A DNA stretch of 64,000 bases from Luteibacter sp. (GTDB lineage Bacteria; Pseudomonadota; Gammaproteobacteria; Xanthomonadales; Rhodanobacteraceae), in the NCBI RefSeq assembly GCF_009912395.1, contig NZ_WNDO01000007.1, positions 1 through 64,000 on the forward strand, written 5' to 3'. The notes beneath the pieces are model-generated. The model was not told the origin of the DNA. It made no database searches and saw only the letters and a program-made list of their open reading frames with translations. Made by a program: the position numbers and the translations under genes. The first letter of the stretch is position 1. Each line of letters begins with the position of its first letter. This document shows, piece after piece, positions 12,083 through 64,000 of the stretch.

Positions 12083-13195
12083 ATGAGCCATACACGCAAC
12101 CGCCCCCTTTCCGCCGCCGACCTCGACGCCTTCGGTGAAGAGCTCGACGCCATCCGTGCGCGCGTCCAGGCCGACATTGGCCCGCGTGACGCCCGCTACA
12201 TCCGCCGCGTCGTCGCCGGCGTGCGCTGGACCGGCGTGACCGGCCGCGCCCTCCTGTTCCTCGGTGCCTTCGTCCACGCCACGCTCGTGCCCGCGTGGAT
12301 CCTCGGCACGCTGCTGCTGGCGCTGTCCAAGATCCTCGAGAACATGGAGCTTGGCCACAACGTCATGCACGGCCAGTACGACTGGATGAACGACCCCAAG
12401 CTCAACGGCAAGACCTACGAGTGGGACATCGTCGCGACTGGCGACAACTGGCGCAAAACGCATAACGTCCAGCACCACACCTATACCAACGTGCGCGGCA
12501 TGGACGACGACATCGGCTACGGCCTGCTGCGCATCTTCCCCGAGCAGCGCTGGCGTCCGTTCTACCTGATGCAGCCGCTCATCGCCGTGGTCTTCGCGCT
12601 GCTGTTCCAGTGGGGCGTGGCGCTGCAGGACCTGCGCATCGGCCGCTGGTTGGCGGGTCGCATGCAACCCGGCGAACTGCGCGAGGCGTTCCGGCCCGTC
12701 ATGCGGAAGGTGGGCAAGCAGGTCCTCAAGGACTACATCGTGTTCCCGCTGCTGGCTGGACCGTTCTTCCTGCCGGTGCTGCTGGGTAACGTGGTAGCCA
12801 ATGGCATCCGCAACCTCTGGACCTACACCGTCATCTTCTGCGGCCACTTCACGGCCAACGCGGAGATCTTCCCCAAGGAAGTGGTGCAGAACGAATCCCG
12901 CGGCCACTGGTACCTGCGTCAGCTGCGCGGTTCGTCCAACCTCACCGGCGGCAAGCTGATGAACGTGCTGACGGGCAACCTCAGCCACCAGATCGAGCAC
13001 CATTTCTATCCCGACCTGCCGGCCAACCGCTACGCCGAGATCGCCGTGGACGTGAAGCGCATCTGCGTGCGCTACGGCCAGCACTACAACACCGGCTCCA
13101 TGCCCCGCCAGTTCGGCCAGGTGATATGGCGCATCCTTCGTCATGCGCTGCCGAGCCGTCCCCGCGTACTCCGTACTGGCGAGGCTATCGCCTAG
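12083..13195 (+). CDS. Membrane fatty-acyl desaturase (DesB-like)
   Basis: The 370-residue integral membrane protein has the three histidine boxes of acyl desaturases: HNVMH (about 92-96), HNVQHH (about 127-132) and HQIEHH (about 300). Hydrophobic helices flank them (about 57-85 and 190-215, 240-265). The boxes bind the di-iron centre that introduces a double bond in phospholipid or CoA-bound acyl chains. ATG 12083 is chosen 8 nt after the reductase stop; the earlier start would overlap that gene. Its stop codon overlaps the convergent phosphopantetheinyl transferase gene by 4 nt, leaving no room for a terminator between them. Confidence 0.9.
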   Translation: MSHTRNRPLSAADLDAFGEELDAIRARVQADIGPRDARYIRRVVAGVRWTGVTGRALLFLGAFVHATLVPAWILGTLLLALSKILENMELGHNVMHGQYDWMNDPKLNGKTYEWDIVATGDNWRKTHNVQHHTYTNVRGMDDDIGYGLLRIFPEQRWRPFYLMQPLIAVVFALLFQWGVALQDLRIGRWLAGRMQPGELREAFRPVMRKVGKQVLKDYIVFPLLAGPFFLPVLLGNVVANGIRNLWTYTVIFCGHFTANAEIFPKEVVQNESRGHWYLRQLRGSSNLTGGKLMNVLTGNLSHQIEHHFYPDLPANRYAEIAVDVKRICVRYGQHYNTGSMPRQFGQVIWRILRHALPSRPRVLRTGEAIA

Positions 13196-13992
13196 GCGGG
13201 TAGCAGCAGGCGAACGGCGGCGCCCGGACTGTCGAACCACCCGTTGCCCCCGGACAAACGCGGAACGCCATATCGAAGGGTGACGCCGATTCGTGCGTCG
13301 CTCTCTTCCGTAGCGATCGCCAGGGCCATGCGATGGGCCGGAGCGACGTCCCATGCATGGAAACGCCATCGTTTCGGATTGCCCAGGGATGGGGTATGGA
13401 AGAAGTGCGCGGGCCGATGCCCTTGGGTATCGAACGAAAACATATCCAACGGCAAGCTCATGCCGCTCCCCCAGGCTTTGACGAAGGCCTCCTTTAGCGT
13501 CCATATCCCAATGAAACGGGCCAGGCGTTCCGACGGTTCCGCCGACACGACGAACCCTGCCTCAGACGCCGTGAAGAACCGCCTCGCCATCGCCTCGACG
13601 TTGCGTATCTGCGCATGGGGTTCGACGTCGATACCCAATCGGCACCCTGTTCCCACCACGCAAGCGACAAGCCCCTTTGAATTCGAAAGATTGAATTCTA
13701 GGTGATTCTCGGTGCCGCCATTTGCGATGCATGGTTTACCGTGGGCATTGGTGTCGAATCGCCATGCGTCGGGCGGCCGATCCGCGAACTCCGAAAGCAT
13801 GATCCGGCAAAGGGCCCGGGTCACTAGGAACTCGGTCCTGGTGTGCTCACCGGTCAGCCTGTCGAATCGATCGCGCTCGCCGTCATCCAGCAAACCCTCG
13901 TAGCTTGATAGAAGCTTCCGCTCAAGGCTTTCGTCGATCTTGACCAGATAGACATGGACATCGTGACGGCGCAAGGTCGGCGCCGCGGCCAT
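13192..13992 (-). CDS. Sfp-type 4'-phosphopantetheinyl transferase
   Basis: The 266-residue enzyme carries the ACPS/Sfp signature: GIDVE at 120-124 (Mg-binding Asp122 and Glu124) and WTLKEAFVKAWG at 164-175 (Glu168, Lys172). Size and the two-lobe arrangement fit broad-range Sfp enzymes. It would transfer phosphopantetheine from CoA to the many ACP and PCP domains of this cluster, which makes it functionally linked to them. It is the last gene of the minus-strand cluster. Its ATG directly follows the stop of the DoxX-like gene, so the two are coupled. Confidence 0.93.
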   Translation of the reverse strand: MAAAPTLRRHDVHVYLVKIDESLERKLLSSYEGLLDDGERDRFDRLTGEHTRTEFLVTRALCRIMLSEFADRPPDAWRFDTNAHGKPCIANGGTENHLEFNLSNSKGLVACVVGTGCRLGIDVEPHAQIRNVEAMARRFFTASEAGFVVSAEPSERLARFIGIWTLKEAFVKAWGSGMSLPLDMFSFDTQGHRPAHFFHTPSLGNPKRWRFHAWDVAPAHRMALAIATEESDARIGVTLRYGVPRLSGGNGWFDSPGAAVRLLLPA

Positions 13993-14433
13993 TTACGTTT
14001 CCGGCAAGGGTTCGACCACGGGGCGCTCGGTCACGCTGGCCCGCATCGGGTAATCGATGAACATCGTTCGATAGCTGGGCCAATAGGCCTGCAACAGCAC
14101 GATGTTCAATCCGCCGACCACCGCCAATGCGTAGTACCAATGCAGATCGAAGGCGTAGAACAGGCAAAGAACTGCTGAAACAGGCGTCAGCAGCGCCGTG
14201 CCGAATGTAGGCTTGAGGTTCAGCAGCAAGCTGATGCCGCCCACGGCCTCGATCAGCTTGAGGAAAACCCAGAAGTAGATCGTATGCTGGAGGATCCCAT
14301 GGAAGGAGGCGAGATTCGATTCGCCCGTCATGTAGATGCCGAAACCAAGCTCGAGCACGCCGTCCACGGCACCGAAAACGAAGATGATGCCGAGAAAGTA
14401 CCGGGCGATGGTCTGGTGCCATTTCAGTCGCAT
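13993..14433 (-). CDS. Small four-helix membrane protein, DoxX-like
   Basis: 146 residues with four predicted membrane helices (about 9-27, 47-68, 76-98, 100-118) and a short polar C-terminus. The general look is that of DoxX/DoxD-type inner-membrane proteins, but no catalytic residue can be pointed to. It sits between the terminal NRPS-TE gene (3 nt gap) and the PPTase gene (adjacent), clearly in the same operon. A role in membrane handling or self-protection for the product is only a guess from position. Confidence 0.6.
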   Translation of the reverse strand: MRLKWHQTIARYFLGIIFVFGAVDGVLELGFGIYMTGESNLASFHGILQHTIYFWVFLKLIEAVGGISLLLNLKPTFGTALLTPVSAVLCLFYAFDLHWYYALAVVGGLNIVLLQAYWPSYRTMFIDYPMRASVTERPVVEPLPET

Positions 14434-14436
14434 GAG

Positions 14437-17400
14437 TCAGTCCTGTTCCTGTAGGTGAAAGATGCCGGTCTGTCGCCAATCCATGGCGATCACGCTGGCG
14501 GCCGGGTGGTCCAACATGGAGAAATGCCCCGCATCGATGTCCACGACACGGGCGGGTTCCGCCAACCACTGGCTCCATCCATAATCATGGTCGACGTCCG
14601 TACGGGCCTCCTGGGCGGCGGTATAGACGGTCACTGGGGCATGGAGGGGCAAGGGCGACGGGGCATAACGCTCATAGGCACGTCGATTGGCATCATGGAC
14701 GGCCAGCAACGTCCCAAGCTGGCGCTCGCCGACATCCAGGTCGAAGGAGGCGAGCAGCGAGGCCCATTGCGACGAGGGACGCGCCACGAGATCCGCGACG
14801 GGGATGTCGATCCTTCTTCCCTGCATATGGCCGATGTGCCTGCAAAGGGTGGCAAATGTCTCCGCCTCGCTTGCCGCTCCGGTGGCGTGGCGCGCGCGGG
14901 GGAAAGCGTCGAGCAGAGCCAGGCTTTCTACCTGCTCCCCCATGTGCTGCAACAGTCGCGCGGTCTCGAAGGCGACCACGCCTCCGAAGGAATGTCCAAG
15001 CAGGCGATAGGGCCCCTCGGGCTGGATGGTCCGGATCGCGTCGACATGGATCCGTGCCGCGGATTCAACGGAATCCGCCGGCGCCGACCTCCCGTCGAGT
15101 CCCGCTGCCTGAAGCCCGAAGAGTAGTTGGTCGTTCCCTAGCGCATCCGCCAGAGAACGGAACGAAAGCACGTTGCCGCCCACGCCCGGGATAGCGAATA
15201 ACGGACGGCGGCTTCCACGCCCTTGAATCGCCACCAGGACGCCGAGCCCGGTCTCCGGCATCCCGGGCCCGAGGCGCCTGGTCAGCGCACCAACGGTGGG
15301 AGCCTCGAAGAGCGCGGCAAGGGGCAACGCACACGACCAGGTACGTTCGATGCGGGCCATGAGACGAACCGCCAGCAGCGAATGTCCGCCAAGGTCGAAG
15401 AAGTCGTCACCCAGGCCGATATCGTCTTCTGCTCGACCCAGGACATCCGCCCAAATAGCGACCATGCGGCATTCGTCCTCGGTGACCGGCGCGATGCGCT
15501 CGCTCCGTCGAGCCACATCGATCTCGATGGCGGCAAGGGCGCGTCGGTCGGTCTTGCCGCTGGTGGTCGTCGGCCAGTCCGTGAGGGCGACGAAGGCGGT
15601 CGGTACCATGTAGGCCGGCAACGCCAGGGCCGCGTGCTCGCGCAGGCGATCGGACTCCGTAAGCGCCTCCGATGCCGCGCGGTAAAACGCCACCAGCCGC
15701 TTGTCCGTGCCCTGCCCCTGCACGACCACCGCCGCCTTCTCCACGCCCTCGTGGCTTTCCAGGCAAGCCTCGATCTCACCCAGCTCGATGCGCAGCCCGC
15801 GCAACTTCACCTGGGTGTCGATACGGCCCAGGTATTCGATGGTCCCATCCTCGTTCCAGCGGGCCAGGTCCCCCGAGCGATACATCCGCTCGCCGGCCGC
15901 GAACGGATCGGCCACGAAACGCTCGGCCGTCAGGTCCGGCCGGTTGAGGTAGCCACGTGCCAAGCCGTCGCCGGCAATGTACAGCTCGCCTGGGATACCG
16001 ATGGGTAGTGGGCGATTGAATCCGTCCAAGATGTAGATCCGCAGGTTGTCGATCGGTACGCCGATCGGCACGTGCGTGGAGGGCAATGTCGCGCAGTCGT
16101 GCGCGGTCACGTCGATCGCTGCCTCGGTGGGGCCGTAAAGGTTGTACAGGCCAGACTGCGGAAAACGTTCGCGATAAGTGGTAGCCGACTTTCGGCCCAA
16201 GGCCTCGCCGCTACAGATCACTCGCATCACGGAATCGTGCGTTGACGCACCATTCTCCAGGAATGCCGCCAACATCGACGGCACGAAGTGCAGCGTGGTC
16301 ACTCCATGGGCATCGATCGCCCGCTCCAGATAGGCCACATCGCGATGGCCCCCCGGTGTCGCCATCGCGATGGTCGCTCCGGTCATCAAGGGCCAGAAGA
16401 ATTCCCAGACCGACACGTCGAAGCTGTATGGCGTCTTCTGTAGCACCACGTCCTTGCCGGACAAGGCGTAAGCCCGCTGCATCCAGCACAAGCGGTTGAC
16501 CAATCCCCGATGCTCGTTGAGCACCCCCTTCGGCTGGCCGGTCGAGCCGGAGGTGTAGATCACGTAGCACAGGGTATTCGCCGTGGCCGGATCGGCCAGG
16601 ACGCGATCCTGCGCACCGGCCTCGATGGCCGCCCACTCGCTGTCCAGGCAACGCAGGTCCACGCCCTCGCCCAGCAACGGCGCGATGCCGTCACGCAGGT
16701 GCGCCTGGGTCAGCACCACCGGTGCCGCGCTGTCGGCAAGCATGTAGCCCAACCGCTCGGACGGATAGTCCGGGTCCAGCGGCAGGTAGGCCGCGCCGGC
16801 CCGCACGATGCCCAGGATCGCCACCACCATCGCCAGCGAGCGTTCCGCGCACAGCCCGACGATCGTATCCGCCCCTACGCCCCGCGCCTGCAGGTAGCGA
16901 GCAAGCGTGGCGCTGCGCGCGTCCAGCTCGGCATAGGTAAGCGAGCCTTCCTCGCCCGTCACCGCCACGGCCTGCGGCGTGCGTGCCATCTGCGCCACGA
17001 TGCTGTCGTGGATCCGCGCTTCGCGCGGATATGGCCACGACGTGGCGTTGAAGTCCTCCAGCACCTGCGTGCGCTCGCCCGGCGGCAGGTAGTCCAGCGT
17101 CTTCAGCGCATCGCCCGGCGCCGCCATCGCGTGCCGACCCAGCGTCGCCAGATGGCCGACCATCCGTTCGATACGCGCACGGCGGTACAACTCCGTGGCG
17201 TAGACGATCGTTCCGTGCAACCCGTCGGGGCCTTCCTCAAATTCGATCGTCAGATCGAACTTGGCAATATCGTGATCCAGACCGAAGGCTTCCACGCCAT
17301 CGGGCATCGTCACCGCAGCCGTGTTCTGCAGGATGACCATCACCTGGAACAGCGGACTGATCGCACGGTTGCGCTGTGGGCGTACCGCTTCCACGATCCG

Positions 17401-20400
17401 TTCGAACGGTGTGTCCTGGTGTTCGTATGCATCCAGGCAGGTCCGCATCGTCGCCGCCAGCAGCGCGTCGAAACCCGCCGTCCCGTCCATCCGCGTGCGC
17501 AACGGCAGCGTGTTGACGAACATGCCCACCAGACCCTCGGTCTCCGCATGCCGCCGATTGGCGATCGGACTGCCGATGCACAAATCATCCTGGCCGCTGT
17601 AGCGGTACAGCAGTGCCTGCACCAAAGCCAGCAACGCCATGTACAGCGTCGCCCCTTGCGCTTCCGCCCGTTCGCGCAAGCCCCGGACCAGCACCGCGTC
17701 GAGTGCGAACGCCACCGAATCGCCTGCGCTGCCGCGTTCGGCCGGGCGCGGGGCATCCATCGGCAGTTCCAGCGATTCGGGCAGGCCGGCCAGTTGCCCC
17801 TGCCAGTACGCCAGCTGCCGGGCCAGGCCACCGCCCTCTTCCAGCCAGCGCCGCTGCCAGATCGCGTAGTCCGCGTACTGGATCGGCAGTGCTGCCAGGT
17901 CCGCTGACGGATCGGCCAGCAACGTGCCCAATTCGGACAACAGCACCCCGATCGACCAACCGTCGCTGACGATATGGTGCATGTTCAACATCAGCACATG
18001 GTCGTCCGTGCCCAGCGTCACCAGCAGGCAGCGCAGCAGCGGTCCTTCGGCCAGGTCGAACGGCGTCGACGCTTCCTTCAGGCACAGCCGCCGCGCTTCC
18101 TCCTCGGCTGCCGATGGCGGCAGATGTGACACATCGACCACATCGAGGCATACGTCCGCCTCAGGCAGCACCTGTTGGTGCGGATCGCCGTCGGTGGCGA
18201 TGAAAATCGTCCGCAAGGTCTCATGACGCTCGACCAGGCGCCTCAACGCAAGGCGAAGCCGCGCCTCATCCATCGATCGATGTGCGCGAGCGGCGCCAGC
18301 AATGTTGTAAGCGGAACTTGCGGGATCGAGTTGATGCAGGAACCATAGGCGTTCCTGCGCAGCGCCTAGCGGACACGTAGTACCCCTCTTCACGGGAGAC
18401 ACGGTCCGCGGCGTATCGGCAGAGGCCTCGTCCACCCTGGCCGCCAGCTCGAGCAACCTCGTATTCGCGAAAAGGGTCCTGACGCCGATCTCGGCACCGA
18501 ATCGCTGGCGGATACGGGCAAGCAAGCGCGTGGCCAACAACGAATGGCCGCCGAGTTCGAAGAATTGTCCGTGTCGACCGATGGCCTCGATCGGCACGGC
18601 AAGCAATTCGGACCAGATCTCCGCAAGGGAACGCTCGGTATCCGTTGCCGGCGGCGTACCCGCATCCTGCGAACCCGTATCGACATGCATGGACAGGAGG
18701 GCCCGCATGTCGACTTTTCCGTTAGGTGTCAGGGGCCACGTCGCCACCTCGACCCAGCCTGCGGGAACCATGTAATCAGGCAGACGCGCGCGCACGTGAT
18801 CGCGAAGGGCATCCGCGCCAGACATGACCGCTCCGTCGACAGATCGATAAAAAGCCAGGAACCGCCCTCCACCGATCTCCGGCTGGGCGATCACCATCGC
18901 TTCGGCGATTGAGGCGTGGGACGACACACAGGCTTTAATCTCGGACGGCTCGATCCGGAATCCACGAATCTTGACCTGGTGGTCCGTGCGGCCGACGTAT
19001 GCCAGCTGTCCATCGTCCCGCCAACGAACAATGTCCCCCGTCCGATAGAGACGGCCATCAACACTGAAGGGGTCCGGTACGAATCGCTCTGCGGTCAGAT
19101 CGTCCCTTCCGAGGTATCCTCGCGCAACGCCGGCGCCACCGATATATAGCTCTCCGGGAACGCCGACGGGAACAAGCCTGCGGCGAGCGTCGAGAACATG
19201 GACCTGCGTATTGTCGATCGGGCCGCCGATGGGAATATCGCCGTCGTCCCGGATGTCGTCCGCCACCAGCCGGGTGGCCGTGCTGATGATGGTCGTCTCG
19301 GTGGGACCATACGTGTTGAACAGTTCCGCTTGCGGCATACGATCGAAGAAAGCGGATACCTTGGCTCCGTCGAGCCGTTCACCGCCGACGATGACCTTCC
19401 TCAGCGTCGGCAGGACGCATCCTGCGCCGACCAGTTCATGGAACAGCGCCGTGGGCAAGTTCAAGGTTGTGAGACCGTGCAGCGACGCCAGCGATTCGAT
19501 GCCGCCCGGTGTCAGAACCTCTTCGCGCTCGGCCATGACCAAGGTGCCCCCGACGCGCAGTACGACGAGCACTTCTTCGAGGAACAGGTCGAACCCCATG
19601 CTCGACACCATGAGCTGGACGTCATCCGCCGCGATGCCGTAGTAACGCGCGGCGAAACGATTATGGTTGACCAACGAACGATGCTCGACGGCCACGCCCT
19701 TGGGCTTGCCCGTCGATCCCGATGTGAAGATCACATAAGCCAGATCGCCGACGGAAGGTCCACGGCCCAGCCGATCCAGCATGAGATCGAGGCGATCATC
19801 TCCTACCTTCGCCATGACCGCCCAGTCCGGCAAATCGACGACGACCGTCACGGCGGTGTCGCCAAGCCAAGCCAGTCCCCGCGGATCGGCGACGAGCGCC
19901 GCGGCGCCGGCATCGACCAGCACCTGATTCAGTCGTTCTGGCGGATGTCGGGGGTCGAGGGGAAGGAAGACATTTCCCGACATGAAGATCGCCAGCATGC
20001 CCGCCACCATCGCGGGTGTCCTGTCGACGCACAGGCCGACTATGGCGTTGCCGTCCAGTCCTTGCGCCTTAAGCCGCAACGCCAAGGTCGCTGCGATAAG
20101 AAGCAGATCCGAGTACGGAACATCGCCTCGCCCGCTGCGAACGGCGACAGCGGCAGGTCTCGCTCGAGCCATCTCGACGATGGCATCATGCACCCGTTCC
20201 CCGTGCGGAAGCGGCGTGTCGGTATCGTTAAACATCGCCAGCAGGCGCTGGCGATCCCGCCCTAGGTAATCGTGATCGCCGATCGGCATATCCGGGCGCG
20301 ATACGAGCACATCGGCCAGGCAGGCCAGGTGCCTGGCCATCCGATCCATCCGTTCCTGCGAAAACATCGCCGTGTTGAATTCCAGGGCCACATCGATCGT

Positions 20401-21765: not shown

Positions 21766-21843
21766 ACGCGTCCTGCCGCCCCTTGTTCCGGCACCTGCCT
21801 TATTCCCCCTACCGGCCACCTGGCGGCCAGGTGCCGCACGCGA

Positions 21844-22560: not shown

Positions 22561-22634
22561 TCTGCTCTCCTGTTCCCCGGATGCCCTGGTGGATTCCGTT
22601 TGTCGATGGACCGTCATATCCGAGGTCCGCATTG

Positions 22635-23882: not shown

Positions 23883-23894
23883 GGCCAACGTTAC

Positions 23895-23909: not shown

Positions 23910-23959
23910 ATGACACTGGCGGGATGGGACGGGCGATAAGGCGCCCTGCCGTAGCCGAC

Positions 23960-23999
23960 GGTCCCGCGACCGGGACCATCACGTCCCATTAGCGGGAAC
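23960..23999. promoter_or_regulatory. Two GTCCC/GGGAC dyads, probable enhancer-binding-protein sites
   Basis: GGTCCCG-CGAC-CGGGACC (23960-23977) is a perfect 7-bp dyad. A weaker one, GTCCC-ATTAGC-GGGAAC (23983-23999), overlaps the NRPS stop codon. They stand 50-90 bp upstream of the -24 element. The same half-sites recur before the permease, which argues for operators rather than a terminator; no T-run follows. Confidence 0.6.
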
Positions 24000-30627: not shown

Positions 30628-30712
30628 CGTAGAGCTCCCTTCATGCGTGCGTGGTGGGGCATGTCCCGTGGATCCGGGCGGCGACATCGGCCGCGGACTT
30701 CACACCGTTCAG

Positions 30713-33503: not shown

Positions 33504-33570
33504 GTTTCCCCCGTTTATCCAACACAAACGTCGTATCCGGCCGTGCCGATGCACGACTCGGACGTACGCA

Positions 33571-48754: not shown

Positions 48755-48814
48755 GCCCCTTCCTTCCCCTTCGATTCCGTTGCGATGGGATCGCTCGATG
48801 CGTCCCATCGATCG

Positions 48815-51800: not shown

Positions 51801-54800
51801 ACCAGCAGCACCCCGCCCGGCAGCGACGTCGCCTTCACCGCCGTCCCCGACAGGCGCACCCCGCCTTCCACCGGCAACGACTCGTCCGACGTCGGCCATG
51901 CCACCGCCGGCACCTGACGGCGCGCCCGCCAGGCCGCCAGCGACGACGCCGGCTGACCCGCCCATCCGCGGGCCAGCGACTGCGCACTCGCCAGCACGCC
52001 TTCCGATCCCGTCACCTGCGCTCCCCGCCAATCCCGGCCCGCACGGCTCTCGCCGTCCAGCAGGGCCCGCCGACCCGACGCCCCCAGGTGCAACGGCAGG
52101 CAGACGCCCGCCCATCCCGACAACGGCAGATCGTCCAATACGTCCGCCGCTCCGTACCAGCCTTCCGCCGCGTGCACCACTTCGTCGCAGCCCAGCATCG
52201 CCAGCCACGAACGCCCACGCGCGTCGCCACCCAGACCCGCCACCACCGGCACCGGCACCGTCGCCAGCCATGCGCACCACGACGCCACCGCCCCCGCGTC
52301 CATCCCCTCCTCGAACGGTGACGACTCGCTCCACAGCACCACCGACCCCGCGCCGCGCGCGATCGCCTCTTCCACCTGGCGGCGAACCGTCGACACCTCG
52401 CGCGCATCACAGCGCACCAGCGCCGGCGCGTCTGCCACCGATACACCCGGTGCGAACGACGGCGTCTCGTCCTGCCGCGACAGGTGCGCCTTCAACAGCC
52501 GCAGCGCCTCGACCGGCTTCTCGGCCAGCGATCCGGCCACCGCCAGCGCCTCCGACGCCACCGCCTCGGCCGCCACCACCTTGCCGCCCCAACCCGCCTG
52601 ACGCCAGGCCTCGCCTCGACGCACCTGCACGTCCACCACGCCCGTACGGGCACGGACCGCCGGCGCCAGACCCCATGACGAGGCCTCCAGCCCGTAGCGA
52701 CCGCTCGCGGACACCACGATCGCGTCGCACGACAACCCCAGCCACCATGCCGGTCCGATCGCGTCGCCCGGCAACGCCGCGATGGTCGGCCATCCTGAAT
52801 CGCGCAGGCGAGCGGCGAGTGCGTCCCAGGCATCGCTTATGACCGAATCCGACGAATCACGCATGCCGACGATCACGCACGTCAACTCGCCAAGCGAGGA
52901 GATCGCGTGGAGCCCTGCAAGCAATGTATCCGGATGCGAAGACGACGCCACAAGACGGATCACTCCGTCGATGGGCTCATCGATGACCACTCCGTCGACG
53001 ACAGGCAATACGCGCGACATCGTGGAACGTTCGCTCCTGCGATCTGCGGCCAGACCGTGGAAACCAATGGCGACCCGCCCTTGTTCGTCGATCACCTGCG
53101 CGTCGAAGCCGATCACGTCGTCATGCCCTGGCAACCGGCTCACACGAATTGTCGCACCGGAAGATACCGGTCCATGGATCCGCAACTCGTCCAGCGTCAA
53201 CAGCGCATGCGATGCGTCGTATTCGCCCAGCAAACCACGTATCCACTCGGAGGACAGCACGATGCGATCATCGCCATGGCTAGACGGTTCGTGCTGCCCG
53301 ACCGACAACGGGCGCACGCCCCCCTGTACCAGCAACGCTTCGTCGCCAACACGGACGATCTCGAACGCGACATCCCCTTCGACATCCTCCCAAAGCAGCA
53401 CATCGAGGACGTCGTCGGCCCGCGGCACATCGAACCAGGCTACGTCGTACAAGCTCAACGGCGTCGTATCGTCCACGCCCAACGCTCGTACTGCCGCCGC
53501 CCGCGCCATCTCCAGGCAATCCCACGCCGTGATTGCCTCGACGAAACGCGAGCGGAACCGCTGGCCACGCAGGTCCGATACGTTCTCGTGCAGTAACGGA
53601 TGCAATCGCGACACGCCCGATGCCGGCGTCTCCGCCGTCGGTAACGACAGCCAGTAGCGCTCCCGGGCGAACGGATAGGTCGGCAAACCCACCTTCGGCA
53701 ACACACGGCCGCCATGCAGCGCCGTCCACGGAATCTCCACCCCGCGTACCCACGCCTGCGCCACGCGCTCCAGGCGTCCCGTCGTCGCCCACCGCGACAC
53801 CGCTTCACGCAGCTCCGCGTCTTCCGCAAACCAGGCCACCGACTCACGGTGCTCCTGGGCCTGGCCCACGTACAGGCCCTCGCGATCCTCGCCCGCCAGG
53901 TAACCGCGCAACGCCGACACCAACTCCTCCGCGTTCGACGCCACCACCGCCAGGCGCTCGTTCATCGCCTCGCGACCCACTTGCAACGTATACGCCACCG
54001 ACGCCAGCGCACCCGCGTCGCCCGACAGGTACCCCAGCAGATCCTCCGCCCGACCACGCAGCGCCGCCTCGGTGCGGCCCGACAGCACCACCACCACCGG
54101 CCCCTCCGGCAACTGCACCGCCGAGGCCTCGTAATCCTCCACCACCATGTGCGCGTTCGATCCCCCCGCACCGAACGACGACAGGCCCGCCACTCGCGGC
54201 CCTCGGCGGCCGTCCACCACCGGAGACTCCCACGCCCGTAGCGTCTGGTTCACCGTGAACGGGCCCGCGTCGAAATCAATGTGCGGGTTCAGCCGCGACG
54301 AATGCAGCGACGGCACCACCTGACGGTGGCGCATCTGCAACAGCACCTTCGTCAGTCCCGCGATGCCTGCCGCCGCCTCGCAATGGCCGATGTTCGACTT
54401 CGCCGAACCCAGCAGGCAGAACCCACGCTCCGACGTGTGTGCACCGAACGCCCGCGACAACGCCGCGATCTCGATCGGATCGCCCAGCTTCGTGCCCGTG
54501 CCATGCGCTTCCACATAGCTCACCCGCCGCGCATCCACGCCTGCCTCGGCCAGCGCCCGGCCAATCGCCGCCGCCTGCGCCTGCGGGTTGGGTATCGTGT
54601 AACCGTTCGTCCGACCGCCGTGGTTCAGCGCGCTGCCACGGATCACACCGTGGATCACGTCACCGTCCCGCTCCGCGTCTGACAGCCGCTTGAGCACCAC
54701 CGCGCCCACGCCCTCGCCCGGAATATAGCCGTCGCCGCCTTCGCCAAAACTCTGGCAGTGCCCCTCGCTAGAGATGAACTGTCCAGCCGATAACATAAGG

Positions 54801-57800
54801 TACTTCTGAGGATGCACCGTCAGATTCACCCCGCCCGCGATCGCCATGCGTGTCCGCCCCGCACGCAAGTCCTGGCAGGCCACATGGATCGCCGTCAACG
54901 ACGAGGAGCACATCGTGTCCACCGTCATGCTCGGACCATGCAGGTCAAGCACATAGGACACGCGGTTCGCGATACTGGCGACATTCCCTGCGAAGCCCAT
55001 GCGCAGCGATTCGGGCGATGCGCGCAGGCCGAGCAACTGATACTCGCTGTACATGACGCCAACATAGACACCGACCTGTCCGGCGTCCTCCCCATCTCCA
55101 CGCAGACTGGCACGCGTGTGACCGGCATCCTCCACGGCCATCCAGGCGTGTTGCAGGAACATCCGCTCCTGCGGATCGAGGAATCTCGCTTCACGCGGTG
55201 CGATGTGGAAGAACTGCGGATCGAATTCGTCGATCCCCTCGATGAACCCGCCCCACCGGCTGTAATGACGCCCTGCGGCGGTCCGGTCTTCACTGTAGTA
55301 GTCACGCCAGTCCCAGCGATCCGCTGGCACCTCCACCACGCAATCCACACCGTCACGCAGGTTGTTCCAGAACCCTGCGATATCGCGCGAACCCGGGTAG
55401 CGTCCGCTCATGCCGATGATCGCGATCGGTTCCGCCGTCGTCGCTCCCAAGGGACGGCCAACCGCTTGCATCTTCTTGGCCGGCGGCGGAGCCACGCGTC
55501 GCTCCGCCGGCACAGGCGTCGGCGCCCTCCGCTCCGTGGCGGCGAAGCGCTTCGCCAGTGCCTCGCCATGTGAACGGACCAGGTAGTCGCCCAGTTCGCC
55601 CAGGTTCCGATACTCGAAGAACAATGTCTTGGGCAGCGACCCGGTGGTTTTTTCCAGCGCGCCGGTAAGCGCCATCGCCAGAATCGAATCCATGCCGAAT
55701 GCGTCGAACGCGGCATCTGCCGCGATACGCTGGATCGGCACCTTCATCACGCGCGCGAACTCGGCCTTAAGCCAGCTGTCCACCGCCCGGCGCAGATCAT
55801 CATCGATCGTCGCTGAGACGTCGTGGGTACGGGGCAGGTTCGCGGGGTCTGCAAGGCCGGTTCCTTCGAGAGTGCGTTGTATCGCATCACGCCTCCCCGA
55901 CATCACCACGGCATGCTCGATACCTTCCACAAGAATCGAGCGCAATGCGCGCCAGGCATCTTTCGTGGCCAGGGCGACCATGCCGGTCGTCTTCTGCCAT
56001 TCGCGACGGGCATGGTCCTCCATACGCATGCCGCCGTCTTTCCATAGGGGCCATGCGATGGATATCGTCCGTCCATGACGTGCGCCGGTGGCAACCAGGG
56101 CATTGCGGTGAGCAGCGAAACCGTCCATGAAGCCATTGGCCGCCGCGTAGTCCGCTTGGCCTACATGCCCGAAGGCCGCGGCCGTCGACGAAAAACAGAC
56201 GAAGAAATCCAACGGCAGGTGGGCCGTCGCTTCGTCAAGTGCCACCGTTCCACCGACCTTGGGTGCAAGCACGATATCCAGTTCGTCGAGCCGCTTCCCC
56301 ATCAGGAATGCGTCGCGTGTCGTCCCTGCGGCGTGGAACACGCCATGCAAGGCGCCTTCACTGGCCACGAGCGATGCGATCGCCTCGGCCACTTGTCCGT
56401 TGTGGGCCAGATCCATGGTGAGATAGCCCACCCTTTCACCAAAACGCGACCGCAGGGCTGCCAGCCGTTCCGCTCGCATGCCGGACACGTCGCCTCGCCC
56501 ACCCAGGACGACTCGCGCGTGCGTGCTCGCTAGGATGTCCTCCGCAAGCAAGCAGCCGATCCCGCCCAGGCCACCGGTGACGAGGTATACGCCGTGTTCG
56601 CGATACGGCGTCTCGCCTCCGGATTCGGGCACGAGTTGCCAGGCCGGCGATGTCTCCACGCCGTCCGCGCCCCATCGGGCCAGGCGGATGCCCGGCCGCC
56701 CGGCCATCTCGTCCGCCCAATCGGCGAAGGCCCTTTCCTCCAGCGAAGCCGGCGCCACCAGGACCTGCGCATGGAACCGGGGCTGCTCTCGCGACACGGA
56801 ACGCAACATGGCGACGAGCCCATGCCACTGCGCAGGATTCTCCCGATCGTCCACCCTTACCTGGAACAGGCAGGGCTCGGGATCGCGCGCTTTCAGCAGC
56901 GACTGGATCGTCTCCATGCAGCTTCGGACCAAGGCGCCGAAATCGTTGGCCTCGGTACCGAGTTCAGACGCACCAGGCCATGGATGTCCCGTGGTGAAAC
57001 GCTCCCTGCGTCGCCAAGACACCGCCATTGCAGCGCTATCAACGGGCTGCCACGTCGATTTCGCCAGAAGCAACGCGTGCTGCGCGACCGGTCCGACACG
57101 GCGCGTGCTGAAACCGCGCCACATGGCGACGACGATACCGTCGGCGTCGCAAAGATCGATATCGATGCGATCATCGCCTTCGGATGCGCGCCTGACCCAG
57201 GCGGCACTCGCAGTCGACGCCGAATCATCGCACCGAACCCAGGCATGATCGACGGAGAATGGCAGACGAGGCTCCGGCTGTGCGCCGCCGAGCAAGCCCA
57301 GACAGGCCTGCAGCGCCGCATCGGCCAGCGACGGATGCAAATGGTAGGCTTTTGCGTCGACCAGCATTCCGGCCGGCAGCGCGAGCTCGGCGAGTACCTC
57401 GCCCTGACCCTGTCGCAGGTCGACAAGCGCACGATGTGCCCTGCCGTATACCAGTCCGAGTCCTTCCAGACGCTCATAGAGTGAAGCGGCGGCCTCCGGT
57501 GCACCCATGCGCGCACGCAACGCACCCAGATCGATGGGCGCCGGTGCCGTCTCGTGGGACCATGCCAGGTGCCCGACGCCATGCGGCATACGGGATCCGT
57601 CGTCGCCACTGGCGATGTCGCAACGCACCTCTCCATGCTCGCCAACGGCTAACGTTGTGTGCACGGTCGAAGGTTCGCGCACGATGAGCGGTGCCAGCCA
57701 GGCGACGTTCTTCAACTGCACCGCGTGGCCTCGATCCGCCGGTGGCGTGGCCCGCTCCAGTGCGGCGCACATCATTTCCATGTAGGCGACGGCAGGCAAT

Positions 57801-60800
57801 ACGGGGGCGACGCGATCGCCAAGCTTCACGCGATGATCGGCAAGGAACGACTCGTCTCCGCGGAATGACGATGTGAACGCCGTCGTCGAAAAATCCGACA
57901 TGTTGACGTGCAACATGGGATGCAGCTGTGAGGAAGATGACTCCGATGCGGCAACGCGAATGACGTCGACCCAATGTCGTTCACGGGCGAAAGCGTATCC
58001 CGGCAAGCCGGCGATGCGTGTACGTGAAGCGTGCAGGAAGCGCCAATCGACATCCACGCCCCGCGTCCACAGGGTCGCCAGTTGCGTGATATCGCCGTGA
58101 GTAGCGGCAGCGGCGATAAGTTCCTGCCCGGACGGCGTACGCCAAAGATCGAGCGTGTCGGCACTGCCAGCGATGTCGCCGTGCCAGATATCATCGCGCT
58201 TCGCACCGGCAAGCCACGCCTGAAGCGCGGCCACCAGTTCATCCCTGCTTCCGACGCGTATGGCCAGGCGATGACGAAGCGCCGCCCGACCGCATTGCCA
58301 AGTCCGGATGGCTGCCGAAAACGACGCTTCCCGGCCGTCGCGCTCAAGCCAGGCGATCACCTTTGCCACCTGGGCTCGCAGACAATCGGCACGGAAGGCG
58401 GACAACACAAACAACCACGGTCCTCGCACCTCTTCATGCCGATGTACCGCATGGTCCGACACAACCGCATGCGCGTTCGCGCCACCGGACCCGAAACTGC
58501 TGATGCCCGCCACCTTCGGCCCGTCAGGCCACGAACCGGACGCCGACTGGACGTGCAGGCCAGCGGATAACCGGATCCTTGGATTGAGCGTCCTGAAATG
58601 GGCAGTGGCGGGCACGCGACCATGGCGGAAGGCAAGCAATACCTTCAGTACACCCGCAAGCCCCGCGGCCGATTCCAGATGTCCGATCTGGCTCTTGATC
58701 GAACCGATGCCGCAATCCACATCTTCCGCGCGTTGCCCGACCATCGCGCACGCCTGACTTATCGCCTCCACTTCGATCGGATCGCCGAGCGAAGTTCCCG
58801 TGCCGTGGGCCTCCAGGTAGCGGAGCATGCCGGGCCCCACACCGGCATCACGCCATGCGGCGAGCAACAGATCGCGCTGCTTTCGCGGATTGGGCACTGT
58901 CAAACCGCTGGCAAGTCCTCCGTGATTGATCGCCGTGCCGCGAATGATGCCCTGCACCGGGTCGCCTTCGGCGATCGCTGCCGCCAATGGCTTGAGATAG
59001 AACGCAACGGCGCCTTCCGCTCGAACATAGCCATCGGCTTGGGCGTCGAAGACCTTGCACAAGCCGTCCGGCGATAACATGCCAGCCTTGTGGTAGGCCA
59101 GCGAAAGGTCGGGATGACAGATCACGTTTACGCCAGCGACCAGCGCACTGGAGCATTCACCGCGACGCAACGATTGCACTGCGGTATGCAGGGCGACCAA
59201 TGACGACGAACAGGCCGTATCCAGCAAGAGGCTCGGACCGACGAAGTCGAAGAAGTAGGACACGCGATTGGCGATCACGGCCAATGAGCTGGCGACGCCC
59301 AGATGTGCCTGCACGTCCTCGCCGCACTCTTGCATGAGCCGGCTGTAGTCGCTGTTGCTGGCACCGACGAACACGCCCACATCCCGGCCAGCCAGGGAAG
59401 CCGGCACGATGCCGGCATCCTCGACGCTTTGCCACGCCAGCTCCAGGACGAGACGCTGCTGCGGATCCATTAGCCGCGCTTCGGCAGGCGAAATACGGAA
59501 GAACGCCGGATCGAACGATTCCAGGTCGGTGACGAATCCACCACGGTCGATACCGGGATATCCGTCGGCGGAAAGCCAACGCCCCCGCGACAGGGGATAA
59601 GGACCGATGGCATCGGCGCCCGAATCCAGCAAGCGCCACAGGTCGGCGGGGGATTCGATACCGCCCGGCAACCTGCAGGCGATACCCACGATCGCGATAT
59701 CGCCATCGCGTCCTTCGAGCGACGACACGGGTGTTCCCGCCTCTGCGGACGCGCGCGATGAGGGCTGCGGAGCGGCCCGGGCGACGCTGGCGGCCGCACG
59801 TGCGACCGTGTTGTTTTCGAAGAAGAAGGCGCCGGGCAGAACAACGCCCAGGGCATCCTCCAGATCACGTTGCAGGGCAAGGAGCGCTGCGGAATCGACC
59901 CCCATCTCCATCAACGGCCTATCGTCGGCATAGGCCGATGCATCCGGTCCCAACCACGCGACGACCTGCTCCCCCAGCCAGCGGGCCACCGTTTCCGCCG
60001 GGGCGTCGCTCAAGGGGCCTGCTATGCCGGAGCGTCTGCCTCCCAGCCTTTCGAGGCGACTGGAAAGCTCGTATGCAACGAGGACACCATGGGTTTCGTT
60101 GATGGCGTCCTGCGGACGATAGCCGCGAACGGCGCGCACGACGTCGGCACCATGGGCGTGATGGAACGCGAGAACCGGATCCTGGCCGCTTCCGTTGCGC
60201 TGGATATAGGTGTCGAACGATTCACCGCGATGCGCGGCGTAGCGCTTGCACAATGTGACGCCGACCACGCCGGTCACCCCCTCCGTGACCGTTGCCACGC
60301 GAAGCAGGAATTCCAGGAGACGATCGCCCAGCCGCTTGTCCTGCCATCGCGGATCGACATTGATGGCAAGCAATTGCACCAGTGGGGTATCCGCACGATG
60401 CAGCGTATGTACATCGTGCGCCGTCAGCGCGTCCAGGGCCGCCGCATCGGCGATGCGCTGGCTGTAGACGCAGCCAGCGATGACCCCGTCCAACTCGATC
60501 ACGAACTGCCCTGCAGCATATGTGTCGATACGTCGACGCAGCGTAACGTCGTCGCTTAGCGTGTGATCCCAGCACAGCGACTCCAACTCGAGCAGTCGCG
60601 GCACATCGGCAATGACGGCTCGACGGACGTGCGCAGCATGCGCGGTCCAGCGGTAGCATCCAACGAGGGGCGTGGCGCCCGGGCACGACACGCAGGTCGA
60701 TGAATCGTAGAAGCCCTGCAAAGCCGCATCTTCGAGTGTGCGCGCGGCGGTCTGCGGCTTGTATCCCGTTGCCGCCTCCAGCATCCGGACGAGTTCGCCG

Positions 60801-61429
60801 AGGGGCGTGGCGCCCGCCGTATGGAACTGATAGCTCGCAGGTAACGGCTCCGCCGGGGAAGGCTCCAAACTCTCCTCGAGCGAATCGCGTGGATATATCG
60901 TCCCTGTGGCCGCGAGGCGAAGTGCGTGGGCGTCGCACCGCGCCGCGACCGGCCATGCCGACGCCACCGCGATCGCACGCAGAGCGTCGCGACAGGCCAG
61001 CATCGCACCGATACGGGGCGACAGGGCCGCAGCCGTGGCTTCGCCGGCGTTCCAGCCGACGAGCGAAAACACATGATGAATGGCTTCCTTAAGCGTCTCG
61101 GGCATCTCGCCCAGGAAGGCTTCGATATGCGAATCGCCGCTTTGCGCCAACGCGGCAAGCAGGGCCGCGGCCCAGGCGTGCGTCGATGGGTGGTCCGCAT
61201 CCGTCAGGGCGGCAAGGTGCGAGGCGAGTCCAGGCGGCGCGGCAACGCCGCCGCGTACCAACGACACATCGAAGAGGGACGCCAGCGACGGTGTACCGTC
61301 GCTTGGCCAATCCCCAAGGCCAAGCCTCTCCAACAGCACTCCGGCATCGGACGGTGCCAGGCCCGCGATCAGCGCGTCCCGAAGCGGCGCCGCAAGGAAT
61401 GCGACGATACAGCGACTTGGATCCAACAT
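48815..61429 (-). CDS. Trans-AT PKS: AR-GNAT-ACP / KS-DH-KR-ACP / KS-(DH)-crotonase x3-ACP / KS
   Basis: 4204 residues. Approximate positions: adaptor 1-265; GNAT 268-455 ([27 protein letters not shown]: the Trp, Thr, His and Arg of CurA-type loading domains); ACP (GVDSAAL, 511); KS (DTACSSSL, 739); DH 1171-1446; KR (TGGLGGIG, 1620); ACP (GMDSILAM, 1913); KS (DTMCSSSL, 2172); degenerate DH-like 2607-2810; two degenerate crotonase folds 2817-2975 and 3010-3176; ECH2-like 3190-3433 ([29 protein letters not shown]); ACP 3502 with Trp at +6 (DSISGVTW); KS (DTACSSSL, 3753); docking helices 4177-4204. It should start the chain with acetyl and place a beta-branch. GGGGGA precedes the ATG. Confidence 0.92.
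53571..54781. repeat. Near-identical 1.2-kb block, copy 2 (KS C-terminal half and linker)
   Basis: Partner of 44940-46150. It lies in the second KS of the 4204-residue PKS and ends where the DH-like sequence of that module turns degenerate ([17 protein letters not shown]). Mismatches cluster near 54560-54770 (for example gggtatcgtg here versus gggcaccgtg). Confidence 0.85.
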
Positions 61430-61506
61430 CCGTTATCCCCCAACCCGGGCACGCATCGTGCCCAACAGAGCCATCCCCGCCCGTGCCCGGCCCCCGCCGG
61501 CACACG

Positions 61507-64000
61507 TCAGAACGTCAGGCGTTCATAGCCCTCTTCCTCATCCCCTTCCCGCCACAGCACCGCGTCGAGCAGCGCCTGGACGTTCGTATCCTCGACCGGA
61601 GCCGGCCCTTCGTCGTCCAGTTCGAAGACGAGTTCGACCGTGTCATCCTCTTCTCCATTATCGCCCTCGACTTTCGAACCCTCGGGGGTCTCGGTCGAAA
61701 CATCCCCAACGACCGGAAGCAGCGTCGCGACATGCATGGCGAGCCCCTCGAGCGAAGGGTGTTCGAAAATCGTTGACGGTGAAAGCGCAACGCCCAGGGC
61801 TCGGTTCAATCCGCGAAACAGATTGGCGACGCCGATCGAATCCAGGCCATATTCGCTCAGGTGGCCCTCGGGATCGATGTCTCCTGCAGGCACCAAGAGA
61901 ATGTCGGCGACGACGGCCAGGATGCGCTCACGAACATCGCGCACACGGGCCTGCGACACATGGCCAGCGGCATGTGCGACAGGAACGGACCGCAACGCTC
62001 CATTGATCGTCGCACGCAGCATGCCGGCTTCGCCGAACATCACCAGCGAAGCAGCGCGGTCCTCCGCCACGCAACGGTGGAACGCCTGGAGTCCTTCGAA
62101 CGACGGCAACGACTCCATGCCGGTGCGCGCCCTAATGGCGTCCTGGATCTGTGCGGACACCTTCATGCCGCCCTCGGCCCACAGCGGCCATCCGATCGAA
62201 CGCCACCCCCTGGCGCCCTCAGCATGACGACGCCTGGCGTACGCGTCCATGAAGCCATTGGCCGCCGCGTAGTCGTACTGCCCAGGATTACCGAGCGTTC
62301 CGACCACGGAGGAAAACGCGACGAAGAAATCCAAGTCCAGGGATCGTGTGGCTTCGTCCAGCCACACCGTCGCCGCAACCTTCGGTGACAGCACGTTCGC
62401 GAGCGTCGATGTGTCCTTGGTGTCCAGCGAACCATCGACAGTGGTTCCCGCAACATGCAGCACGCCATCGAGTCTTCCGTGACGACGCACGATTGCGCCC
62501 ATCTGCGTATCGATGGAGGTGCGGTCGCCCAGGTCGATAGTGGCCCACGATACCCTCCCGCCGACCTCGTCCGCGAGCGCGTTCCAGCGAACGCGCCTTT
62601 CCAGGCTAGGTTCCGAGCGTCCCGTAAGCACCACGTGCGCATGCTTGGTACGCGAGAGGATATCGCGCGCGAAGAGGAGCCCGAGTCCTCCCAGGCCTCC
62701 GGTGATCACGTATACGCCATGTTCGCGATACGCCGGCCTGGACTCGGCACGTCCCGAGTCGATGACAAACGCCCGCAACACCGTCCAATCGCCGCTGGCC
62801 GATACGCGGACAACGGTGGACGGCGCGTCCGTCGCCGCGCGATCCAGCCATGTCGCTATCGAGGATGCGGGCGTATCCGTCGGCACGATGACGATCTGGA
62901 CGTCCAGCCCCGGTCGCTCGTATCCAACCGTGCGCGCCATGCCTTCCAGCCCTGCGGCCAGATCGGCCATCCCCCCCCTCGACCACGATCTGCACCAGGC
63001 CCGGCGTCTTGATCGCATGCACCGCGGCGAGACACGACGCTACCCATTCCGCATATGTTCCTGCGGCATCAGTCTGCAGTGCGACCGATGTTACATGCAG
63101 CGCCGCCAGCGCACCATGCCACGTATCTATCCGTCCGGCCGGAACCAGGGCATGACGACGCCCCGCATGAGCGCTCGCCCCACTGAAATCCAGTGGCGCC
63201 CACCGGGATTCGGCTATGACGGTCCCCGAACCGAGCGAGGATGAAGATGAAGCGGTCGACGACGATTCCTTCTTCGCTTCCCGTCGGAACCCGTCCACGC
63301 CGGGCAACCAGCAACGCTCGCGCGCGAACGGATAGCCCGGCAAAGGCAGGCGACGCGGAGGACGTCCGACCCAAGGCGCATGCCAGTCGACAGTGGCGCC
63401 CTCGACCCATGCCTTGGCCACATCGGCCGGAGTCGCGCCTGACGCAGGAATCGCGGCAGGCATGTCGTTCTTCACCACACCCTGCCAAACCGATGCGTCA
63501 TCCCCGCCGGCCAACACGTTCCGCCATGCATCCATCAGCCCGGTACGGTCGGAGGCGACCACCGCGACACGGCTGGCCATGGCGTCGCGACCTACCTGGA
63601 GGGTGAACGCCAGGCGATCCAGGTCGATGTTCGGATCACGCGCTACGTGCTCAAGCATGCGAAGCACGTAGTCGGCGACACGTTGTCCGTCGCGGGCCGA
63701 GAGAGGGAACACCCGTTCGCGACAGGTCGCCGTGCCGCTAGCCGGCACCCGGTATTCCTCAAGCACGATATGCGCATTCGCCCCGCCGAAGCCGAACGAA
63801 CTCACGCCAGCGATGCGTGGCACCTCCACGCCGTCCCGTCGGGGAGCCTTCCAGTCCGTGGTACGTCCGGCGATGTAGAACGGCGAACCCTTCAGATCGA
63901 TATAAGGGTTCATCTCCTGAAAATGCACGTTCGCCGGAATGCGCCGTGCCCGCATGGCGAGCAACGCGCGAAGGATTCCCGCGATGCCCGCGGCGGTTTC
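61507..64000 (-). CDS. Trans-AT PKS, C-terminal part: KS-KR-ACP; frame broken at a G8 run; continues off the window
   Basis: From the right edge the frame is open (ETAAGIAGILRALLAM) and gives the C-terminal part of a KS (ending ANAHIVLEEY near 63750), a linker and the structural half of a KR, down to VQIVVEGG near 62975. A run of eight G then shifts the frame. The +1 frame continues MADLAAGLEG, the KR Rossmann loop TGGLGGLG (near 62690), ACP (GLDSIGVA, near 61825) and an acidic tail ending EEEGYERLTF at 61507. With seven G the whole would be one protein. As written the upstream frame loses the KR catalytic half and ACP. No DH is present. It ends 77 nt before the next PKS gene. Confidence 0.85.
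62971..62978 (-). repeat. Eight-base homopolymer (G8 on the coding strand) at a PKS frameshift
   Basis: C8 on the plus strand lies exactly where the PKS frame breaks. Removing one base restores GTC-GAG-GGG-GGG-ATG-GCC-GAT and fuses the two halves. It may be a sequencing error, a phase-variable tract or a transcriptional slippage site. Confidence 0.8.

What the first reader, a model, noticed from the sequence alone, without database searches (positions are those of the whole stretch)
13192..64000. Apparently undescribed trans-AT PKS-NRPS hybrid cluster
The sequence shows a GNAT-type acetyl loading module, beta-branching enzymes, an AsnB amidotransferase, three NRPS modules (two with a Ser code) with a TE, a three-part ABC exporter, a START-domain protein and an Sfp PPTase on one strand. 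I cannot match this set to a known compound. The predicted product is a beta-branched polyene/hydroxy polyketide joined to about three amino acids, possibly an amide.
Basis: partly seen in the sequence, partly recalled or inferred. Interest (0 to 1): 0.85.

Follow-up and report, generated by a model that had tools for sequence, protein, structure and literature searches.

The report
Sulfur-inserting hybrid polyketide-peptide gene cluster
A gammaproteobacterium carries a roughly 70-kb enzyme assembly line, also present in several relatives, that appears to build an unknown polyketide-peptide and to insert sulfur into the middle of the growing chain, a chemistry known best from the anticancer leinamycin family.

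Summary
The cluster runs from 13,192 to about 83.8 kb of the contig. PKS1 (62,606-72,151) begins with a DUF-SH didomain, the sulfur-inserting pair of the leinamycin family, preceded by a free ACP. Six Lysobacterales genomes share DUF-SH, free ACP, AsnB-type amidotransferase, HMG synthase and P450. In other Lysobacterales the same parts are fused as KS-DH-ACP-DUF-SH-KS. So the sulfur module here is probably split over three proteins: PKS3 C-terminus, free ACP, PKS1 N-terminus. Working order: PKS2 (GNAT start), PKS3, ACP, PKS1, NRPS1, NRPS2. Unlike leinamycin, sulfur enters mid-chain and extension continues; 11 of 12 KS domains following SH form one clade. The DUF matches the MprF-type lysyltransferase family (PF09924), here and in two Streptomyces copies tested. 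Open points: product, thiol versus persulfide, the electrophile for sulfur addition (the module's DH looks inactive here), and the amidotransferase's substrate. PKS1 carries a frame break. DUF-SH outside the leinamycin family was already reported, so this is a new variant of a known kind.

The parts
13192..13992 (-). Sfp-type phosphopantetheinyl transferase
   Evidence: ACPS Pfam 1.9e-19
13993..14433 (-). orf146, small protein of unknown family, found beside the cluster in G005 and G023 and in the G774 cluster
   Evidence: no Pfam or NCBIfam match; homologs
14437..21819 (-). NRPS2: C-A(unassigned)-PCP-C-A(Ser-type)-PCP-TE, TubC-like N-terminal docking
21844..22668 (-). ABC ATPase of exporter
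22635..23888 (-). HlyD-type membrane fusion protein
23989..27369 (-). NRPS1: C-A(Ser-type)-PCP with TubC docking domain
27406..28128 (-). START-fold lipid-transfer-like protein with an N-terminal helix
   Evidence: predicted fold vs PDB 3qsz, E 3.3e-8, model pLDDT 65.5
28207..30687 (-). MacB/FtsX-type permease
30820..31944 (-). stand-alone acyltransferase AT1, FabD-like
31970..32224 (-). donor ACP of the HMG-synthase cassette (GANSMDRSEI)
32244..33554 (-). HMG-CoA-synthase-like HCS
33571..34398 (-). MBL-fold hydrolase, distant relative of SolJ (253 bits, family cut-off 350)
34468..36360 (-). AsnB-type amidotransferase, nearest PDB entry 7ylz; likely start at 36315
36290..48808 (-). PKS3: DH-(KR remnant, by eye)-ACP | KS-DH-KR-ACP | KS-KR-ACP | KS-DH(looks inactive), no ACP at the end
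36359..38968 (-). KS6 and DH6, the proposed first part of the split sulfur module
   Evidence: VEGHGTGT clade of 6 KS, support 1.00; catalytic Asp of DH replaced
48815..61429 (-). PKS2: N-terminal region-GNAT-ACP | KS-DH-KR-ACP | KS-mECH-ACP(Trp flag) | KS
61507..63018 (-). KR-ACP segment belonging to the end of PKS1, out of frame with it here
62606..64000 (-). End of PKS1 inside the window. The gene continues outside it to contig base 72,151: DUF (71072-72079) and SH (69728-70960) | KS-DH-KR-ACP | KS; a free ACP gene (72181-72534) precedes it.

Best explanation
It is a trans-AT PKS-NRPS assembly line that most likely makes a sulfur-bearing, beta-branched polyketide ending in a short Ser-X-Ser peptide. 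PKS2 starts the chain with an acetyl unit (GNAT) and adds a beta-branch at the Trp-flagged ACP. PKS3 extends it. The last KS of PKS3 hands the chain to a free ACP. There the DUF-SH didomain at the start of PKS1 adds a cysteine or thiocysteine unit (DUF, as proposed for leinamycin) and cleaves the C-S bond (SH), leaving a thiol or hydropersulfide. The next KS of PKS1 extends the sulfur-bearing chain. Two NRPS proteins add three residues and the TE releases or cyclises the product. The AsnB-type enzyme converts some carboxylate to an amide, less likely a hydroxamate. Shown by sequence: the domains, their conservation and the fused versions of the module. Inferred: order of proteins, sulfur chemistry, amide and product.
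For: SH: best PDB match is the PKS domain 9cen (E 2.7e-49), ahead of tyrosine phenol-lyase; the PLP lysine aligns in 30 of 30 SH rows (23 distinct domains; partial or weak SH hits were left out). DUF: homologous to the DUF in 10 of 10 DUF-bearing loci outside Lysobacterales, nine Streptomyces and G166, all ACP-ACP-DUF; 3 of 3 Streptomyces loci tested have a thioesterase-type hydrolase after SH, the leinamycin layout. DUF-SH with AsnB, HCS and P450 in 6 of 6 genomes. Split module: PKS3 ends in KS-DH without ACP in own, G005, G023, G025, G026; a free ACP precedes DUF-SH in 6 of 6; G862 shows KS-DH-ACP-DUF followed in the next overlapping ORF by SH-KS-DH-KR-ACP, G811 DH-ACP-DUF-SH-KS, G774 and G952 ACP-DUF-SH-KS. 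A profile built from those four fused ACPs ranks the six free ACPs 1-6 of 121 other ACPs. KS after SH: 11 of 12 in one clade, support 1.00; the twelfth, G1237 from another class, falls outside. GNAT loading: CurA and GphF.
Against: No metabolite is known. DH6 lacks at least one of its two catalytic residues in all six AsnB-bearing clusters (Asp replaced in own, G005, G023; His in G005, G024, G025, G026), though both are present in G774 and G862, and the module has no KR hit, so the electrophile for sulfur addition is unexplained. The free ACP has no Trp flag, so beta-branching there is doubtful. With the profile of the six free ACPs, two of the four fused ACPs rank below one unrelated ACP (ranks 1, 2, 4, 5 of 119). 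KS6 does not group with the G862 KS in the same position. PKS1 is frame-broken here, so this strain may not make the product. Gene order (PKS1 first) differs from the proposed order.
Confidence: 0.62

Rival explanations
1. Collinear reading: PKS1 acts first. The free ACP carries a small acyl starter, DUF-SH turns it into a thiol starter, and PKS2 and PKS3 follow.
For: The gene order free ACP, PKS1, GNAT-PKS2 is seen in own, G005, G025 and G026; PKS3 lies after PKS2 in own and, with one more PKS between, in G005.
Against: PKS2 carries its own GNAT-ACP loading region like CurA; PKS3 ends without an ACP; in G862 and G811 the DUF-SH follows an upstream (KS-)DH-ACP in the same reading order.
Confidence: 0.15
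2. The sulfur module is beta-branched as in leinamycin: HCS and ECH1 make a carboxylated branch on the free ACP, DUF-SH adds sulfur at the branched carbon, and the AsnB amidates the retained branch carboxylate.
For: The only ECH2 found in the own cluster is in cis in another module, so a branch made elsewhere would keep its carboxylate; AsnB and HCS are near neighbours in 6 of 6 clusters; a leinamycin precedent exists (PMC7618002 passages).
Against: The free ACP lacks the Trp flag, and leinamycin first-tandem and Trp-flag ACPs score low (14-29 bits) against the profile of free and fused sulfur-module ACPs. In PMC7618002 only ACP7, not ACP8, accepted the HMG unit. AsnB is absent at E 1e-60 from seven other DUF-SH or SH genomes, some of them drafts.
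Confidence: 0.25
3. DUF-SH is a relic or has another PLP role, and the product is an ordinary beta-branched polyketide-peptide.
For: PKS1 is frame-broken here; I saw no report of activity for any Lysobacterales SH domain.
Against: DUF and SH are full length in the five other genomes; PLP lysine conserved; dedicated downstream KS clade.
Confidence: 0.12
4. Glutarimide-type line: the AsnB makes a malonamyl starter and the terminal KS-DH-like didomain is a branching KS-B.
For: AsnB occurs in trans-AT glutarimide clusters (recalled); DH6 is degenerate.
Against: GNAT loading is present; DH6 aligns with DH domains that keep both catalytic residues in G774 and G862; the AsnB's best PDB match is 7ylz.
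Confidence: 0.05

Closest known systems
Leinamycin family (leinamycin, guangnanmycin, weishanmycin) DUF-SH PKSs
   Same: Homologous DUF and SH domains, HMG-synthase cassette, NRPS-PKS hybrid
   Different: There DUF-SH sits in the last module, KS-ACP-ACP-DUF-SH-TE (PMC7618002 passage). Here it is mid-line, uses one free ACP, is followed by more KS modules, and the line starts with GNAT and ends in NRPS
Non-leinamycin DUF-SH PKSs (three further families among 109 clusters, PMC8479088 passage)
   Same: One ACP per DUF-SH module and no TE in it (PMC7618002 passage)
   Different: Their organisms and figures were not available to me, so this cluster may already be one of them; the split over three proteins and the AsnB are what I would check first
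Trichostatin hydroxyamidotransferase (PDB 7ylz; named TsnB9 from recall)
   Same: Match of the AsnB over residues 16-628, E 1.9e-164, far above E. coli AsnB at 7.3e-48
   Different: The hydroxamate cassette also has TsnB6 and TsnB7 (PMC13418202 passages); no candidate was recognised in this cluster, but their sequences were not in hand
CurA/GphF GNAT loading modules
   Same: GNAT-ACP at the start of PKS2
   Different: Rest of the line not compared
Solanimycin cluster
   Same: Relatives of SolJ and SolL, both below the family cut-offs
   Different: No DUF-SH in its table of proteins

Membership tests
trans-AT PKS | No in-line AT in the modules; stand-alone ATs in the cluster; trans-AT KS linkers | tested here: met
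   No Acyl_transf hit in PKS1-3, RhiE-like linkers present, AT1 and AT2 stand alone
DUF-SH didomain PKS | DUF homologous to the DUF preceding SH in leinamycin-type PKSs | tested here: met
DUF-SH didomain PKS | PLP-type SH domain with catalytic lysine | tested here: met
DUF-SH didomain PKS | Cysteine or thiocysteine lyase activity | not testable with these tools
   Needs a bench assay
Leinamycin family | Terminal module KS-ACP-ACP-DUF-SH-TE | tested here: not met
   ACP free and single, KS follows SH, no TE in PKS1
HMG-synthase beta-branching | HCS, donor ACP, decarboxylative KS, ECH1, ECH2, Trp-flagged acceptor ACP | tested here: met
GNAT-loaded PKS | GNAT-ACP at the N-terminus, homologous to CurA | tested here: met
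Hydroxamate (TsnB6/7/9) cassette | Amidooxygenase pair beside the amidotransferase | tested here: inconclusive
   None recognised among annotated genes; TsnB6 and TsnB7 sequences not available
Glutarimide PKS | Branching KS-B module plus malonamyl starter | tested here: inconclusive
   GNAT starter present; the terminal DH-like domain aligns as a degenerate DH
Solanimycin cluster | SolJ and SolL above NCBIfam cut-offs | tested here: not met
   253 vs 350 and 190 vs 780 bits
Any characterised MIBiG cluster | Same KS order and accessory genes | not testable with these tools
   MIBiG and antiSMASH not available

The most novel reading that the evidence does not exclude
The DUF of DUF-SH is an aminoacyl-transfer domain of the MprF/LPG-synthase kind: it takes cysteine (or its persulfide) from an activated donor, possibly aminoacyl-tRNA, and delivers it to the ACP-bound chain. 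In this Lysobacterales family this happens mid-chain on a dedicated free ACP, and a matching KS clade then extends a thiol- or persulfide-bearing polyketide, which the AsnB-type enzyme further decorates with an amide or hydroxamate.
Probability: 0.1. Interest if true: 0.88.

Novelty: new variant of a known kind. Interest (0 to 1): 0.58.

Why it matters
If right, sulfur insertion is not confined to the end of leinamycin-type lines: it is a movable module that can sit mid-chain and be split over three proteins, with a KS clade that tolerates its product. That makes an open point testable. PMC7618002 asks whether chain transfer from the first to the second tandem ACP happens before or after sulfur incorporation (passage). 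Here there is one free ACP of 106-141 residues in the six clusters, easy to express, whose profile (with the four fused ones) scores the second leinamycin-type ACP above the first (nine of nine at 33-50 bits against nine of nine at 14-29), although many ordinary ACPs score as high or higher. The PF09924 match gives the DUF a fold family and residues to test. The natural split and fused forms, and the apparent module loss relative to G005, are guides for engineering.

Tried and rejected
Rejected: solanimycin kinship (below cut-offs, no DUF-SH in its table). Rejected: that the free ACP is orthologous to the second leinamycin-type ACP; the ACP tree did not group them (19 free or last-before-DUF ACPs spread over a clade of 114 of 125) and many ordinary ACPs score higher. 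Weakened: my own first idea that the sulfur module is beta-branched and that AsnB amidates that branch (no Trp flag, AsnB absent from other DUF-SH genomes). Considered: KS6 as a non-elongating KS in a dehydrating bimodule; its Cys and both His are present and DH6 looks inactive here, so not supported for this strain. Rejected: the desaturase/ferredoxin-reductase pair 11001-13195 as tailoring enzymes; opposite strand, looks like a common housekeeping pair (recalled). Counts not used: SH-only matches at about 30% (G011, G838, G896; G1316, G1280) are probably free-standing tyrosine phenol-lyase or tryptophanase relatives and were not counted as DUF-SH. G969 has the same coordinates and scores as G025 and is taken as the same genome. 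PCPs of NRPSs were left out of the ACP set by name; repeat loci of the same place appear twice; SH hits under 280 residues or 100 bits were left out. An earlier wording of mine, in a notebook entry, that DH6 lost its His in all six is not what one search shows; the report gives the residues. No KS clade prediction against TransATor was possible. The genus was not identified; by the kinship table the genome shares a family with G969, which I take to be Tahibacter aquaticus.
Full report
What was checked. The window is bases 1-64,000 of contig C54 (194,554 bp) of a 5.39-Mb genome. The START protein has no Pfam or NCBIfam hit, but a weak AlphaFold model (pLDDT 65.5, three sequences) matches START folds, best 3qsz.

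The cluster is cut by the window end. Upstream on the same contig lie the rest of PKS1, a free ACP, a divergent P450, an ECH1 (PksH-like, E 6.9e-85), a KS with Ser in place of the active-site Cys (GGASASG; the decarboxylative type of beta-branching cassettes, recalled), a histidine kinase with a sigma-54 regulator, a second AT, an ALDH and an 801-aa ORF with a C-terminal MATE domain. With the HCS, donor ACP and in-cis ECH2 inside the window the beta-branching cassette is complete. Of nine own PKS ACPs, the free one included, only that of the ECH module has the Trp flag ([10 protein letters not shown]).

The missed hallmark. Residues 1-830 of PKS1 hold a domain matching PF09924 (LPG_synthase_C, E 9e-15, above its cut-off) and a PLP domain whose best PDB match is 9cen, 'Polyketide Synthase Protein' (E 2.7e-49), before tyrosine phenol-lyase. 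This is the DUF-SH layout of leinamycin-type PKSs. A search of 295 Streptomyces genomes found matches in 11, nine of them with the DUF part. In all ten DUF-bearing loci examined (nine Streptomyces plus gammaproteobacterium G166) the layout is ACP-ACP-DUF, followed by SH in nine (only in part in L117 and L122; L125 ends before it). In 3 of 3 Streptomyces loci tested a thioesterase-type alpha/beta hydrolase follows SH. The two Streptomyces DUFs tested also match PF09924 (E 2e-18 and 9e-18). The literature passages I read call the DUF a domain of unknown function; one search for a link to lysyltransferases showed no leinamycin paper in the six rows listed of 1,003.

Distribution. DUF-SH with AsnB, HCS, MBL, AT1, KS0, ECH and P450 occurs in own, G005 (70% identity), G023 (Rhodanobacter MAG), G024 (Tahibacter caeni), G025 (T. 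aquaticus) and G026 (Lysobacterales MAG). In the last four the parts lie on two contigs each and are taken as one cluster. In samples of the order, class and phylum, matches were 11 of 299, 3 of 369 and 5 of 398. Of the 11 in the order, eight have both DUF and SH and three only SH at about 30%. AsnB at E 1e-60 was found in 1 of 8 further genomes asked, the one taken to be T. aquaticus again, so AsnB marks the six-cluster clade, not DUF-SH in general. The other way round, 1 of 10 Streptomyces genomes chosen for an AsnB relative has DUF and SH, more than 100 kb from that AsnB on the same contig.

Order of the line. PKS2 starts with a GNAT-ACP like CurA (E 1.3e-41). PKS2 ends in a KS and PKS3 begins with a DH, an ordinary split module. 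PKS3 ends in KS-DH without ACP in five clusters; in G024 only a DH just before AsnB is visible. A free ACP lies directly before DUF-SH in six of six. In other Lysobacterales the parts are joined: G862 KS-DH-ACP-DUF then SH-KS-DH-KR-ACP in the next overlapping ORF, G811 DH-ACP-DUF-SH-KS, G774 and G952 ACP-DUF-SH-KS-DH-KR-ACP. A profile from the four fused ACPs ranks the six free ACPs first to sixth of 121; the reverse gives ranks 1, 2, 4, 5 of 119. In a tree of 78 KS domains, 11 of 12 that follow SH form one clade with support 1.00, the exception being G1237; six of seven Lysobacterales KS assigned to the sulfur module form another, the exception being G862; the leinamycin-type KS of that position form a third. 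This supports PKS2, PKS3, free ACP, PKS1, NRPS1, NRPS2.

Chemistry. Shown: domains and conserved lysine (30 of 30 SH rows, 23 distinct). Inferred from characterised relatives (PMC8479088 and PMC7618002, passages read): DUF adds thiocysteine or cysteine, SH cleaves it. Unresolved: the acceptor. The module has no KR hit, and its DH lacks at least one catalytic residue in all six clusters (Asp in own, G005, G023; His in G005, G024, G025, G026) but keeps both in G774 and G862. The free ACP has no Trp flag. The profile of free and fused ACPs scores second-tandem leinamycin-type ACPs at 33-50 bits and first-tandem and Trp-flag ACPs at 14-29, so beta-branching on this ACP is doubtful, although many unrelated ACPs also score 44-68.

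Amidotransferase and peptide. The AsnB matches PDB 7ylz (hydroxyamidotransferase) over residues 16-628 at E 1.9e-164, E. coli AsnB at 7.3e-48. PMC13418202 (passages) describes three genes for hydroxamates; no TsnB6/7 candidate was recognised here, so an amide is the likelier outcome. A-domain motifs read DVW-H-F/I-S-L-I-D (Ser-type) for NRPS1 and the last A domain; the middle one is unassigned (by eye).

Module loss and frame break. Own PKS2 aligns over residues 1-2705 with G005 PKS2 and over 2868-4204 with the C-terminus of a further G005 PKS of 4,402 aa that has no separate counterpart here; G023 also has a KS of the part that is missing, so this strain probably lost modules. G005 also has one more NRPS module. 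PKS1 is interrupted at a run of eight G; the G005 gene is one ORF. Whether this is a sequencing error or a real mutation is not known.

Literature. Searches; most returned capped lists, of which I saw titles and abstract starts. PMC11451712 (passages) reports uncharacterised trans-AT hybrid clusters in Lysobacter; its figures were not seen. PMC8479088 reports 109 DUF-SH clusters with three families outside leinamycin (passage) without naming organisms in the passages seen, so prior sighting of this family cannot be excluded. PMC7930024: no occurrence of Lysobacter, Luteibacter or Dyella in its main text. PMC9765074: passages. PMC11260071: two reference-list passages, nothing on this.

Noticed in passing
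window 4148-7180 (-) and 94-786 (-): Tn3-family transposase and a Mu-transposase-C ORF lie downstream of the cluster near the contig end, so mobile DNA is close to it.
   Followed up: no
window 11001-13195 (+): Ferredoxin-reductase-like and fatty-acid-desaturase genes converge on the PPTase gene, with an overlap of four bases.
   Followed up: no
G166:C32:72358-93399: A gammaproteobacterial genome carries a 7,013-aa PKS with leinamycin-like ACP-ACP-DUF-SH at its end and an HCS after it, outside the actinobacteria.
   Followed up: partly
L118/L162 and L117/L163 (Streptomyces sp. NBC_01669, G402 C3): One Streptomyces genome has a full SH domain directly after a KS without a DUF match and, about 49 kb away, ACP-ACP-DUF with only a partial SH match.
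   Followed up: no
L157 (G1237:C79): A proteobacterium of another class has a weak DUF match followed by SH-KS-KR-ACP at the start of a PKS whose upstream neighbour ends in ACP-ACP; its KS lies outside the post-SH clade.
   Followed up: no
L104 and L103 (G023:C12:73,556-92,306): The Rhodanobacter MAG has a second HCS and a PKS block with in-cis ECH domains and tandem Trp-flag ACPs beyond its NRPS2.
   Followed up: no
L015 and L016 (G005:C1:1,507,181-1,517,686): G005 NRPS2 has one more C-A-PCP module than the window's NRPS2.
   Followed up: no
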